From: a virus
DNA length: 64,000 nucleotides
Virus record (IMG/VR): IMGVR_UViG_3300037010_001749
Span: 21,896-85,895 of that record
Strand: one strand, 5' to 3'
Position 1 is the first letter of the stretch; the number at the start of each line of letters is the position of its first letter. Below, one piece after another: positions 44,237 to 64,000 of this stretch. The notes under the pieces were generated by a model. The model saw nothing but the letters and a program-made list of their open reading frames with translations, searched no databases and had not been told where the DNA came from. A program made the translations under genes and the position numbers.

Positions 44237-45280
44237 GGTATCGATCCTTAAGACTAGGGTAAATGCGGCCCGATTATTCGGGCCGGTAATCCGAAGGATT
44301 ACCCTAATGGGCGGCCATTAGGGAAACCCTCGTGAGGGTTTCGGTTTCACAAGCCGCGGGTTAGGCCCTAAACCTTACCGCGGCTAGAAACCATGAGCGC
44401 TAAGACAATGCGCATGCCTCAAAAAGTTAGCCGGGTTCTCAATTTTGACCCGTGGCTAACTTCGCTGCTATCAAAACCCGTTACAGGGTGCCTGTCTGCA
44501 CTATGCATATACATCCGCGCCTTTCGGCTGCTAATCGGGGTCATTCTTTCGCTTTTCGAATGGTTTGCACGGCGGCTATGTTCGGGGTTTTCTTTCGCAT
44601 CCTTTCCCTCGTTTGTTTCTCTTGGCACAAGGTGGCCTCACGTCCTATCTCACCGCCTAGGTGGGCGCCGGGCCCGCTATCCCGGCCGCGCCTCACGGCG
44701 CGGATTTCTGGCCTAACCCTGCCAGTCTGGTGCGCAAACCCCTAGGGGCTCACCCTAGAGATAGCGCGCTTGAGTTGTTAAAGAGCGCTGCCGGAGCCTA
44801 CCGCCGGACTGCGCCGCGGGCTTACCGCCCGGGGCTTGCATCTATCGTTTCCTCTAGTGCATGGCTAGTAATGTATCCCTAAGCGCTAAGGAACCAATCA
44901 GGACAAACCCTAATAGGGTTTACCCCACATATAACTTCGGTGCGCGACGCATGCACGCGTTAAATAGATTCGGAATTAGCGAAACGCAATAGGGGTTTAC
45001 CCTAATGTTCTGCATTCGCTGTTTTTTCAGACCCCCATAGGGGTTAGGTACCAAAAGGCAAAAAAGGCCATAAACGGCCGTCTGATGCTTTCCAGCGGCA
45101 AAGGGTTAACCCCTAGTCTAGCTGGCCTGGTTTTTGACGGCATGTTTGTTGCCTGTTACAATTACACGCCCATTAGTAACACACTGATACGCACGCATCG
45201 GCTATTCGGCCCATGCCAGCAAGCACGCACATCCTTAGCCCTAAGGGCCATGCGGGTATCACTGGGCCATGCCCAGCGCT
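44237..45280. promoter_or_regulatory. Divergent non-coding region rich in CCCTA/TAGGG palindromes
   Basis: Separates leftward and rightward genes; no convincing gene seen. Hairpins include GGCCCGA/TCGGGCC (44267-44284), CCCTAATGG/CCATTAGGG (about 44300-44322), GCCGCGG/CCGCGGC (about 44355-44385), and AAACCCTA-AT-AGGGTTT (about 44904-44920). Further CCCTA or TAGGG half-sites occur near 44740, 44985, 45035 and 45108, and repeat copies at 44245, 44876 and 45232. Likely contains early and late promoters and operators. Confidence 0.5.
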
Positions 45281-45668
45281 CGACCCGGGGCCATGACCCG
45301 GGCCCATGCCCAGCGCTCGACCCGGGGCCATGGCAAGGGCTCGACCCGGGCCCATGGCAAGGGCTCGACCCGGGCCCATGGCAAGGGCTCTACCCGGGGC
45401 CATGGCAAGGGCTCTACCCGGGGCCATGACCCGGGCCCATGCCCAGCGCTCGACCCGGGGCCATGGCAAGGGCTCGACCCGGGGCCATGGCAAGGGCTCG
45501 ACCCGGGCCCATGGCAAGGGCTCGACCCGGGGCCATGACCCGGGGCCATGCCCAGCGCTCGACCCGGGGCCATGGCAAGGGCTCGACCCGGGCCCATGGC
45601 AAGGGCTCGACCCGGGGCCATGACCCGGGGCCATGCCCAGCGCTCGACCCGGGGCCATGGCAAGGGCT
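45281..45668. repeat. Tandem repeat block of 24- and 37-bp units
   Basis: Ten short units (24 bp, CGACCCGGGGCCATGGCAAG plus ggct, with variants) and four long units (37 bp, in which CATGACCCGGG and CATGCCCAGCGCT replace the short tail), order L-SSSS-L-SSS-L-SS-L-S, with partial long units at both edges. Every unit holds CCCGGG and a CATGG or GGGCCC palindrome. It sits 170 bp before the rightward operon that begins with HTH and terminase genes. Plausible roles are replication origin iterons, terminase recognition or an enhancer. Confidence 0.9.
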
Positions 45669-45843
45669 CGACCCGGGGCCATGACCCGGGCCCATGGTGG
45701 CCGCCGAATCCGCGCCCCAGGGAGTGTCAGGGCCCCAGGTACACTTTGCGCCATGGGCCTGGTCCTGGGCCACGGCCCTGGGCCCCTCCCCCTTCGCGAA
45801 ATTTTTGGTATCTTTTCGGCCAGTTTTGCAAGACAATACCCCC

Positions 45844-48306: not shown

Positions 48307-48561
48307 ATGACCCAAGTACGTGCCAAATTCCGAGTCAATCTGGTGACCCCTTACCTGGACGTGGGCGGCAAGCCCAGCGGGTGGCGTATCAGCCTGGCGC
48401 CGGTCTACGACAGTAACCCGCAGTCGGAGAACGGCCAGTTCTACCAGCAGACCCCTTGGGGTGACATCACCCTGGGCACGGTCAACTCCGCGGCCTCTGA
48501 GTTTTTCAAGAGTGGCGCTGAGATCTACGTGGACTTCACCCCCGTGCAGCCGGCGGATTGA
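48307..48561 (+). CDS. Hypothetical protein, 84 aa
   Basis: AGGAGG five bases before ATG. Beta-rich (RAKFRVNLVTPYLDVGGKPS and YQQTPWGDITLGTV). Between terminase and portal, so possibly a small head-associated protein. Not recognised. Confidence 0.72.
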   Translation: MTQVRAKFRVNLVTPYLDVGGKPSGWRISLAPVYDSNPQSENGQFYQQTPWGDITLGTVNSAASEFFKSGAEIYVDFTPVQPAD

Positions 48562-48568
48562 CAGCCCT

Positions 48569-48591
48569 GCGGAGTCTGACTTAGACTCCGC
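48569..48591 (+). terminator. Hairpin after the 84-aa gene
   Basis: GCGGAGTCT / AGACTCCGC with a 5-nt loop, 7 bp after the stop. No T-run; may protect or attenuate the RNA. Confidence 0.45.
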
Positions 48592-48593
48592 GT

Positions 48594-48722
48594 CGTCGAG
48601 AGAGCTTGGGCCGTGGGTCAGCAATGTGGCCTCCCTGCTGACATCTGGACCAGCACGCCGTGGAGTCCTCCCTGCTGGTGAATAACTGAGGACCAGGGGC
48701 CACGCCCCAAGCTCTCTCGACG
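48594..48722 (+). ncRNA. Candidate branched structured element before portal gene
   Basis: A 23-bp outer arm (48594-48616 with 48700-48722, one mismatch) closes two inner hairpins: GTCAGCA/TGCTGAC (48617-48642) and CCAGCA/TGCTGG (48650-48678). Both inner loops end in CCTCCC just before TGCTG. There is no ORF. It could be a structured RNA, a leader for the portal mRNA, or a DNA cruciform used in packaging. Confidence 0.55.
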
Positions 48723-48754
48723 GCGCGGCGCGCCACAGGCACAATGGGGGACCC

Positions 48755-50266
48755 ATGAAGACGCCCATCGACATCTTCGAGACCCCCCTCTGGAAGGCTG
48801 CCACCTCTGTGGCACCGGTCCAGATGCCCAAGGTCAGCCCGAAGCAACAGAGCTACCCGGGCTTTGCCGTGGGACTCACAGCCAGCACGTCCGTGCTTCG
48901 CCGCGAAGACCTGGGGCTGGCCAGCACCGACATTCTGTCGTTTCGGTCAGAAGGTGATAGCCGAAAGATGCTGGCCAAGCTGGCTCGGGCCAATCCGGAC
49001 CTGGGCGCAGCTGTCAATGCCTACCTCCGGGTGGGCCTGACACAGTCGGCCAAATGCTGGGCCATCAACATGGCGGACGGCAGCTTCAACCGTGATGCCA
49101 CCATCCTTGCGCACACCCTGGTGCGCCGCTTCGACCTGGTACCCGACTACGTGGCGGACGGCTTCAGCCAGACGGCCAGCATTCGCTCTTTCGCGGAGTC
49201 CGCGGCACTTGAGATCCTGTTCAATGGCGCGGCCTGCTCCGAGCTTGTGCTGGACAAGACCCGCTTGCCTGGCAAGCTGATGCTGGTGCCTGTCGTCAAC
49301 ATCAAGTTCTACCAGGACGACAAGGGCGTCCGGCCTGTGCAACTTGTGGGCGGCCAGGAGGTTGACCTCGACTTTCCGACCATCTTCTGGACCAGCGTGG
49401 ACCAGCCGGTGCTCAGCGCCTACGCGCACAGCCCGCTGGAGGCCAGCATTCAGCCTGTGCTGGCCGACAGCGAGTATCTGAACGATCTTCGTCGCGTGCT
49501 CAAGCGCGCTGTGCAGCCGCGCCTGCAGGCCCTGATCGATATGGATGTGGCCAAGAAGATGGCGCCTCCTGAAGTCCAGGTGGACCCAGCCAAGATGGAA
49601 GCTTTCCTGGTCCAGATCCGCGCCGACGTGGAACGGACGCTGAACGGGCTGAGCCCGGAAGACGCTCTCGTGGCGTTCAACATGATCAACTTCAGCTATG
49701 TGTCAGGTGGCACGGGCGACGTGCCAGACGTCATCACGGTCATCCAGCAGCTGCTGAACGCCAAAATGTCGGCCGGGTCCAAGACGTTACCGTCTGTGCT
49801 CGGCCATGGCTCTGGCAGCCAGAACATCGCCAGCAGTGAGACGCTGCTCTTCATGAAGTCAGCCGACGGCATCGTGCGTAGCAAGCTCAACGAGATGCTC
49901 TCGAAGATGCTGACACTGGGCGTGCGACTGTTCGGCCAGGACGTTGCAGTCTATTTCGAGTACGACCCCATCCAGTTGCGGCCTGCAGATGAACTGGAGG
50001 CCTTCAAGGCCATGCAGCAGGCCAGGGTGCTGGAGCAGTTGAGCCTTGGCTTTCTGGAAGACGACATGGCGGCGATCCTCCTGACAAGCCGTGTCACTCC
50101 CAACGGCTTCAAGCCACTATCCGGCACCCAGTTTTATGGCGCCAAGTCGGTAGACCCGGCAGGCAACGGCTACTCGGGCACCAGCAACGGTGGCGCGGGT
50201 GGCGGGGCGCTGAACCAGAGCCTCAAGCCTGGCACGCCCAAGAAGGCAGGGGGCAAGTCGCAGTGA
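48755..50266 (+). CDS. Portal protein
   Basis: 503 residues, preceded by GGGGGACCC. The pattern KMLAKLARANPDLGAAVNAYLR, a central LMLVPVVNIKFYQDD beta region, TVIQQLLNAKMSAGSKTLPS and a C-terminal helical clip/crown part with ELEAFKAMQQARVLEQLSLG follow the usual portal plan. It would form the dodecameric ring at the capsid vertex. The Gly/Ser-rich C-terminus is flexible. Confidence 0.82.
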   Translation: MKTPIDIFETPLWKAATSVAPVQMPKVSPKQQSYPGFAVGLTASTSVLRREDLGLASTDILSFRSEGDSRKMLAKLARANPDLGAAVNAYLRVGLTQSAKCWAINMADGSFNRDATILAHTLVRRFDLVPDYVADGFSQTASIRSFAESAALEILFNGAACSELVLDKTRLPGKLMLVPVVNIKFYQDDKGVRPVQLVGGQEVDLDFPTIFWTSVDQPVLSAYAHSPLEASIQPVLADSEYLNDLRRVLKRAVQPRLQALIDMDVAKKMAPPEVQVDPAKMEAFLVQIRADVERTLNGLSPEDALVAFNMINFSYVSGGTGDVPDVITVIQQLLNAKMSAGSKTLPSVLGHGSGSQNIASSETLLFMKSADGIVRSKLNEMLSKMLTLGVRLFGQDVAVYFEYDPIQLRPADELEAFKAMQQARVLEQLSLGFLEDDMAAILLTSRVTPNGFKPLSGTQFYGAKSVDPAGNGYSGTSNGGAGGGALNQSLKPGTPKKAGGKSQ

Positions 50267-63729: not shown

Positions 63730-64000
63730 ACCCTGGCTTGTTCGCGCTGAAAACCTTCTCCGTTTTGATCCGGAAACGGGCTACTTCTATTGGAGGCAGA
63801 GCCGAGGTGGCACTGCTCGGGCCGGGGAAAGGGCCGGGGGGATCGACGCCTACGGCTACTGGGTTGTGAAGCTAGAAGGTAAGAGCTACAAGGCCCACAG
63901 ACTTGCTTGGGCCTTCATTCATCGGGCATGGCCGGCCGGAGATTTGGACCACAAGTTCAGTTCTCACCAAGACAACCGTGTAGCCTTTTTGCGCCCGGCC
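63716..64000 (+). CDS. HNH endonuclease, cut by window end
   Basis: Starts ATG 63716 inside the previous gene. The first 95 residues contain DAYGYWVVKLEGKSYKAHRL, AWAFIHRAWPAGDLDH and DNR, the HNH layout of free-standing phage homing nucleases. C-terminus lies beyond 64000. Placed between neck and presumably tail genes. Confidence 0.8.
   Translation, partial: MEDLEPWLVRAENLLRFDPETGYFYWRQSRGGTARAGERAGGIDAYGYWVVKLEGKSYKAHRLAWAFIHRAWPAGDLDHKFSSHQDNRVAFLRPA

What the first reader, a model, noticed from the sequence alone, without database searches (positions are those of the whole stretch)
48594..48722. Branched inverted-repeat element upstream of the portal gene
A 23-bp outer stem encloses two hairpins whose loops share the CCTCCC-TGCTG ending. 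No ORF fits. Compact multi-branch folds in phage head operons are rare; a packaging-type RNA, a translational leader for portal, or a recombination/processing site are possible.
Basis: partly seen in the sequence, partly recalled or inferred. Interest (0 to 1): 0.75.

Follow-up and report, generated by a model that had tools for sequence, protein, structure and literature searches.

The report
New double-pseudoknot RNA in phages
The folded element just upstream of this phage's portal gene belongs to a widespread family of about 100-nucleotide phage RNAs with two interlocked pseudoknots, often carrying a self-cleaving hammerhead ribozyme in other phages, that I could not find in Rfam or in the open literature I could search.

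Summary
The long outer stem is confirmed (48588-48613 with 48703-48728). Inside it lie two covarying pseudoknots (P1/P2 and P3/P4), not two simple hairpins. The "shared loop ending" consists of strands that pair elsewhere. A covariance model built without the window finds it at 83.6 bits, E 7e-23. About 77 distinct relatives occur in unrelated phages: Mycobacterium phage Gaia, Arthrobacter phages Constance and Karkharias, Microcystis phage Mwe-JY26, and many IMG/VR contigs. All P4 helices pair perfectly, and P1 and P3 covary through compensatory changes. Forty of 65 carry an embedded hammerhead ribozyme; the window's copy does not. Eighteen of 57 lie within 1 kb of tRNA genes, always on the same strand. 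Rfam 15 has no such family. None of 65 searched records, nearly all terminase/portal relatives, has it, so it came in horizontally and is not a portal-specific leader or packaging RNA. Here it starts at a predicted promoter (48558-48587). Best guess: a structured RNA embedded in a longer transcript, bounded by its outer stem and acting in trans. Fold and family are secure; function is inferred.

The parts
48558..48587 (+). predicted sigma70-type promoter TTGACA-18-TAGACT; predicted transcription start about 48594, the foot of the outer stem
   Evidence: consensus scan, 10 of 12 matches; only 3 sites of this quality on both strands of 64 kb, about 0.005 expected per intergenic stretch of this length. 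Not proved to be used.
48569..48591 (.). 23-bp dyad GCGGAGTCT-n5-AGACTCCGC covering the -10 box and the foot of the outer stem; possible operator or alternative hairpin
   Evidence: pattern search: the only copy in the window, 0.08 expected with up to 3 mismatches
48588..48613 (+). outer stem P0, 5' strand (26 nt, pairs with 48703-48728, one mismatch)
48612..48709 (+). conserved core of the RNA family (CGUGGG...P2')
   Evidence: covariance model R1 trained without the window: 83.6 bits, E 6.9e-23
48618..48641 (+). helix P1: 48618-48623 with 48636-48641
   Evidence: 98.8% paired and covarying in 52 members
48626..48703 (+). helix P2 (pseudoknot with P1): 48626-48631 GUGGCC with 48698-48703 GGCCAC; the last pair competes with P0
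   Evidence: mean 8.2 bp in 52 members against 4.8 with foreign partners
48649..48679 (+). helix P3: 48649-48655 with 48673-48679
   Evidence: six pairs 100% paired with compensatory changes
48656..48664 (+). linker CGC-CGUGGA between P3 and P4; site of the hammerhead ribozyme in 40 of 65 relatives, absent here
48665..48693 (+). helix P4 (pseudoknot with P3): 48665-48670 GUCCUC with 48688-48693 GAGGAC; 48680-48687 is the invariant loop GAAUAACU
   Evidence: 100% paired in 65 members, all four Watson-Crick types at three positions; the same in 12 further members
48703..48728 (+). outer stem P0, 3' strand
48755..50266 (+). portal gene downstream (GGGGGA at 48746-48751 as ribosome binding site)
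   Evidence: phrog_3753, E 2e-59; sequence

Best explanation
The element is a member, without hammerhead, of a conserved phage non-coding RNA family of about 100 nt whose core is two H-type pseudoknots, one enclosed by the other (P1/P2 enclosing P3/P4), here closed by a 26-bp outer stem (shown by comparison). In this phage it probably forms the first about 130 nt of a transcript that starts near 48594 and runs into the portal gene (inferred from the promoter match). The outer stem is long enough to be an RNase III substrate, which would cut the core out of the precursor, as in ribosomal RNA maturation; in many relatives a hammerhead inside the RNA would cut the chain next to the conserved CGYGGAGU (both inferred). 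The released, compact RNA then most likely acts in trans, through its invariant single-stranded stretches, on a host or phage protein or RNA. The partner is not known. Identity as a family member is about 0.97 certain; the excision and trans-acting steps about 0.45.
For: Leave-one-out covariance model: 83.6 bits, E 6.9e-23. Covariation of P1, P2, P3, P4. Same core in unrelated phages. Absent from the terminase/portal relatives, so it is a separate module. Long outer stems of unrelated sequence around the same core in about 20 of 57. Always on the strand of neighbouring tRNA genes, 94 to 0. The nearest upstream gene is co-directional in 39 loci and opposite in 14, the downstream one 28 and 25, which does not fit a leader of the downstream gene. 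Hammerhead at a fixed place in 40 of 65.
Against: No transcript data. Promoters and terminators of their own are not enriched around members, so most would have to be cut out of longer transcripts. Many members lack a long outer stem, so RNase III excision cannot be general. No partner or phenotype is known.
Confidence: 0.55

Rival explanations
1. Cis-acting 5' leader of the portal mRNA: the folded 5' end protects the message from decay or tunes portal translation.
For: Predicted start at the foot of the stem and a ribosome binding site 18 nt after the stem. Some relatives have short hairpins at the predicted 5' end of the portal mRNA (read by eye). Another member, in L277, also lies between a terminase and a portal gene.
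Against: The RNA is absent from the terminase/portal relatives, many of which look leaderless. The family has no preferred downstream gene or orientation.
Confidence: 0.25
2. A self-cleaving ribozyme of a new kind: the double-pseudoknot core cuts itself near CGYGGAGU, where other members carry a hammerhead.
For: Interlocked pseudoknots and many invariant unpaired bases; a hammerhead occupies the same place in 40 of 65 members, as if cleavage there were wanted.
Against: No HDV-like P3 or other known active site seen; no activity data; members without hammerhead have only about 3 nt there.
Confidence: 0.12
3. Packaging RNA of the phi29 pRNA type, or a packaging site, acting at the portal.
For: Position between terminase and portal genes in the window and in L277.
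Against: Found in tRNA arrays and next to helicase, primase and integrase genes of unrelated phages; absent from this phage's own terminase/portal relatives.
Confidence: 0.03
4. A small transposon-like element (MITE) with terminal inverted repeats.
For: Long inverted ends; the terminase-portal gap takes insertions in relatives (TnpB-like element in L026 and L031).
Against: Outer stems differ completely between members while the core is conserved. No flanking duplication seen by eye. No second copy in this record, and none found in plasmids or E. coli genomes.
Confidence: 0.02

Closest known systems
Hammerhead ribozymes of phages and prophages (Rfam clan CL00010; Perreault et al. 2011, PMC3088659)
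   Same: 40 of 65 relatives contain a complete hammerhead core at a fixed place; phage setting.
   Different: The window's copy has none, and the double-pseudoknot core around it is not part of any hammerhead model; Rfam hammerhead models stay below cut-off.
Theta ribozymes (HDV-like, next to phage tRNA genes; Kienbeck et al. 2024, PMC10879173)
   Same: Phage RNA near tRNA genes with interlocked pseudoknots.
   Different: No P3 between the P2 5' strand and the P1 3' strand; the paper reports cleavage sites at tRNA 3' ends in gut phages; no Rfam match here.
GOLLD and ROOL RNAs of phages (PMC12286853)
   Same: Ornate phage RNAs; GOLLD is associated with tRNAs (own knowledge).
   Different: Those are several times larger (own knowledge); no Rfam match.
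phi29 pRNA
   Same: Structured phage RNA of similar size; head-gene neighbourhood in the window.
   Different: No sequence or Rfam match; the family is not tied to packaging genes.

Membership tests
Double-pseudoknot phage RNA family described here | conserved CGUGGG, CAUCUGG, CGYGGAGU and GAAUAACUG in order | tested here: met
   model without the window: 83.6 bits
Double-pseudoknot phage RNA family described here | helices P1-P4 form in the window's copy | tested here: met
Hammerhead ribozyme | CUGANGA ... GAAA ... UH core | tested here: not met
   the linker is only CGC-CGUGGA in the window; present in relatives
HDV-like / theta ribozyme | nested double pseudoknot with P3 and J4/2 | tested here: not met
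   two pseudoknots, but only about 4-6 nt where P3 should be; no Rfam match at E 10
HDV-like / theta ribozyme | self-cleavage | not testable with these tools
   needs in vitro transcription
GOLLD / ROOL | match to Rfam models | tested here: not met
phi29-type pRNA | match to Rfam model, or linkage to packaging genes across relatives | tested here: not met
phi29-type pRNA | required for packaging, binds portal | not testable with these tools
   needs experiment
Portal-gene leader | present upstream of homologous portal genes | tested here: not met
   0 of 65 records

The most novel reading that the evidence does not exclude
A widespread class of phage RNA, not recorded in Rfam, built from two pseudoknots, one enclosed by the other, moves between unrelated phages (often within tRNA arrays), frequently carries its own hammerhead ribozyme, and provides a trans-acting function during infection, for example binding a host factor.
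Probability: 0.55. Interest if true: 0.9.

Novelty: categorically new. Interest (0 to 1): 0.8.

Why it matters
Compact RNAs with many invariant unpaired bases and interlocked pseudoknots are usually ligand-binding, catalytic or protein-binding machines. Finding one in unrelated phages, on the strand of tRNA genes and often with a built-in hammerhead, points to a shared phage need that is met by RNA. Members exist in cultured, laboratory-tractable phages (Mycobacterium phage Gaia on M. smegmatis, Arthrobacter phages Constance and Karkharias), so function can be tested directly. It may also give the hammerheads inside it a context, since the role of phage hammerheads is still unclear.

Tried and rejected
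Arm 16-mer in viral contigs: three further hits were chance matches that look coding by eye. Relatives of the head operon as a source of covariation: the gap between terminase and portal is filled by unrelated things there (a TnpB-like element, an SGNH-hydrolase-like gene, a PhoH-like gene, other sRNA-like units), none homologous (the gene names are my reading of the sequence). Hairpins in the same gap of Pseudomonas phages Lana, PMBT3 and UAntarctica look like terminator-type stems followed by a promoter and are not members. The minus-strand GGGAGG loops (CsrA-type decoy idea) were dropped once P2 and P4 were found. The genome-contig scan: only L211 and L213 are real; the other 15 look like chance. 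L302 (E 2.7e-5) has no P4 and is chance. The transposon reading was dropped (variable ends, conserved core). A tRNA-like reading (P2 about 8 bp plus P1 5 bp resembling acceptor plus T stem) is only a length coincidence and was not pursued. Dedicated promoters or terminators around the family: not enriched.

Full report
OBSERVATION. The outer inverted repeat is real: 48588-48616 with 48700-48728, 93% complementary, the longest repeat within 300 nt in the window. RNA folding of the stretch is far below shuffles on both strands. It lies between an 84-aa gene (48307-48561) and the portal gene at 48755 in an 85,895-base IMG/VR record. The only other copy of the locus that I found, IMGVR_UViG_3300035180_002911, has an identical element, so variation inside the lineage says nothing. 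Rfam 15 has no match in the window, and none over the element even at E 10.

RELATIVES OF THE HEAD OPERON. Terminase (GpA type, phrog_675) and portal (phrog_3753) have relatives in Vibrio, Pseudomonas, Caulobacter, Achromobacter and Acinetobacter phages and in about 150 IMG/VR loci. The gap between the two genes is variable and takes insertions. Many portal genes follow directly on a sigma70-like promoter with no or almost no leader. None of these loci has the element (covariance model over 65 records, 544 kb; two of the 65 are the rest of the window's own record). The window itself has a strong promoter match, TTGACA-18-TAGACT at 48558-48587, whose predicted start (about 48594) is the foot of the stem.

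THE TURN. A sensitive blastn of 48565-48755 against phages hit intergenic DNA of unrelated phages: Microcystis phage Mwe-JY26 inside a tRNA array, and Arthrobacter phages Karkharias and Constance. Their alignment shows a common core. Pattern scans of IMG/VR built on that core gave 23 and then 100 stretches, a GTDB scan gave two real hits, and further blastn searches gave Mycobacterium phages Gaia and phiGD24-3 and Enterobacter phage SDFMU_EhYP. After removal of duplicates 65 members were parsed and 12 more found later.

STRUCTURE. The order is CGUGGG - P1 - P2 - P1' - CAUCUGG - P3 - (short linker or hammerhead) - CGYGGAG - P4 - CC - P3' - GAAUAACU - P4' - CYAG - P2' (CYAG is typical, not invariant). 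P1/P2 form one pseudoknot and P3/P4 a second one enclosed by it. P4 is 100% paired over 65 members with all four Watson-Crick types at three positions, P3 100% in six pairs, P1 98.8%; partners dealt anew give 79, 70 and 65% (the 70% includes a seventh, weak P3 pair). P2 averages 8.2 bp against 4.8 for foreign partners. In the second pattern scan three bases on each side of P4 were free, yet P4 is perfect in all 77 members. On the alignment of 22 hammerhead-less members the covariation score is 0.648, shuffles give 0.186, slid partners at most 0.126. A model trained without the window scores it 83.6 bits, E 6.9e-23. Members are not all independent (L225/L280 and L239/L279, for example, are near relatives), so the counts overstate the number of events, but the changes involve all pair types in phages with unrelated genes.

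HAMMERHEAD. In 40 of 65 members the linker between P3 and CGYGGAG is a complete hammerhead core (CUGANGA, stem II, GAAA, stem III, UH), with stem I formed by the CGY of the conserved motif and covarying with it. Some members (L182, L226, L238, L250, L255, L262, L275) show the hammerhead and the 3' module only. Rfam's hammerhead models do not reach their cut-offs, but HH9 aligns exactly there in L199 (16.5 bits). The window has only three bases, CGC, at this place.

CONTEXT. Eighteen of 57 members have tRNA genes within 1 kb, 94 tRNAs on the same strand and none opposite. The nearest upstream gene is co-directional in 39 and opposite in 14; the nearest downstream gene 28 and 25 (simple ORF calls). 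Neighbours with PHROG matches include helicases, primase, terminase, portal, scaffold, integrase and an exonuclease. L277 also lies between a terminase and a portal of another phage type. Own promoters or terminators are not enriched. About 20 of 57 have an outer stem above the control level, mostly 15-26 bp, directly next to the core, and of unrelated sequence.

INTERPRETATION. What is shown: a conserved RNA with two covarying pseudoknots; the window holds a member with an unusually long outer stem and no hammerhead; the RNA is not a property of this phage's head operon. What is inferred: transcription from about 48594; excision at the outer stem by RNase III; action in trans. A cis effect on portal in this phage remains possible. 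A packaging RNA, a recombination site and a transposon are unlikely.

LITERATURE. Ten full-text searches and passages of three papers gave no description of this RNA. Most subscription-journal papers and preprints are not held, so an unseen report is possible; the label 'categorically new' is conditional on that.

NOTE ON SUBMISSION.

Noticed in passing
L178, L185, L191, L192, L198, L199, L219 and about 33 more relatives: Complete hammerhead ribozyme cores embedded at a fixed place in a double-pseudoknot RNA, below the cut-off of Rfam's hammerhead models.
   Followed up: partly
L133, L134, L137, L140, L143-L145, L148, L158 and others, upstream of the portal gene: Portal genes seem to be transcribed from GGATTGACTTT-N17-CAGTAT with the ATG only 6-7 nt after the -10 box, i.e. 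leaderless portal mRNAs.
   Followed up: partly
L026 and L031 2712-3950: TnpB-like insertion of the IS200/IS605 type between terminase and portal genes, with an empty site in L027 and L028.
   Followed up: no
L113, L114, L158, upstream of the portal gene: Other compact sRNA-like units with promoter-like and terminator-like sequences in the same gap, not members of the family.
   Followed up: no
window 45264-45700: GC-rich tandem array upstream of the terminase gene, with copy-number differences against L005.
   Followed up: no
window 63821-64000 and G000:C1:1-180: The two ends of the record overlap by 180 nt at 98.3%, suggesting a circular or terminally redundant genome.
   Followed up: no
L303 1374-1679: Enterobacter phage SDFMU_EhYP (Autographiviridae) has sequence similar to the core between its capsid and tail tubular protein A genes.
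   Followed up: partly
L177:3075-3162: Selenocysteine-tRNA-like hit below its cut-off just after the RNA in the Microcystis phage tRNA array (34.7 bits, cut-off 47).
   Followed up: no
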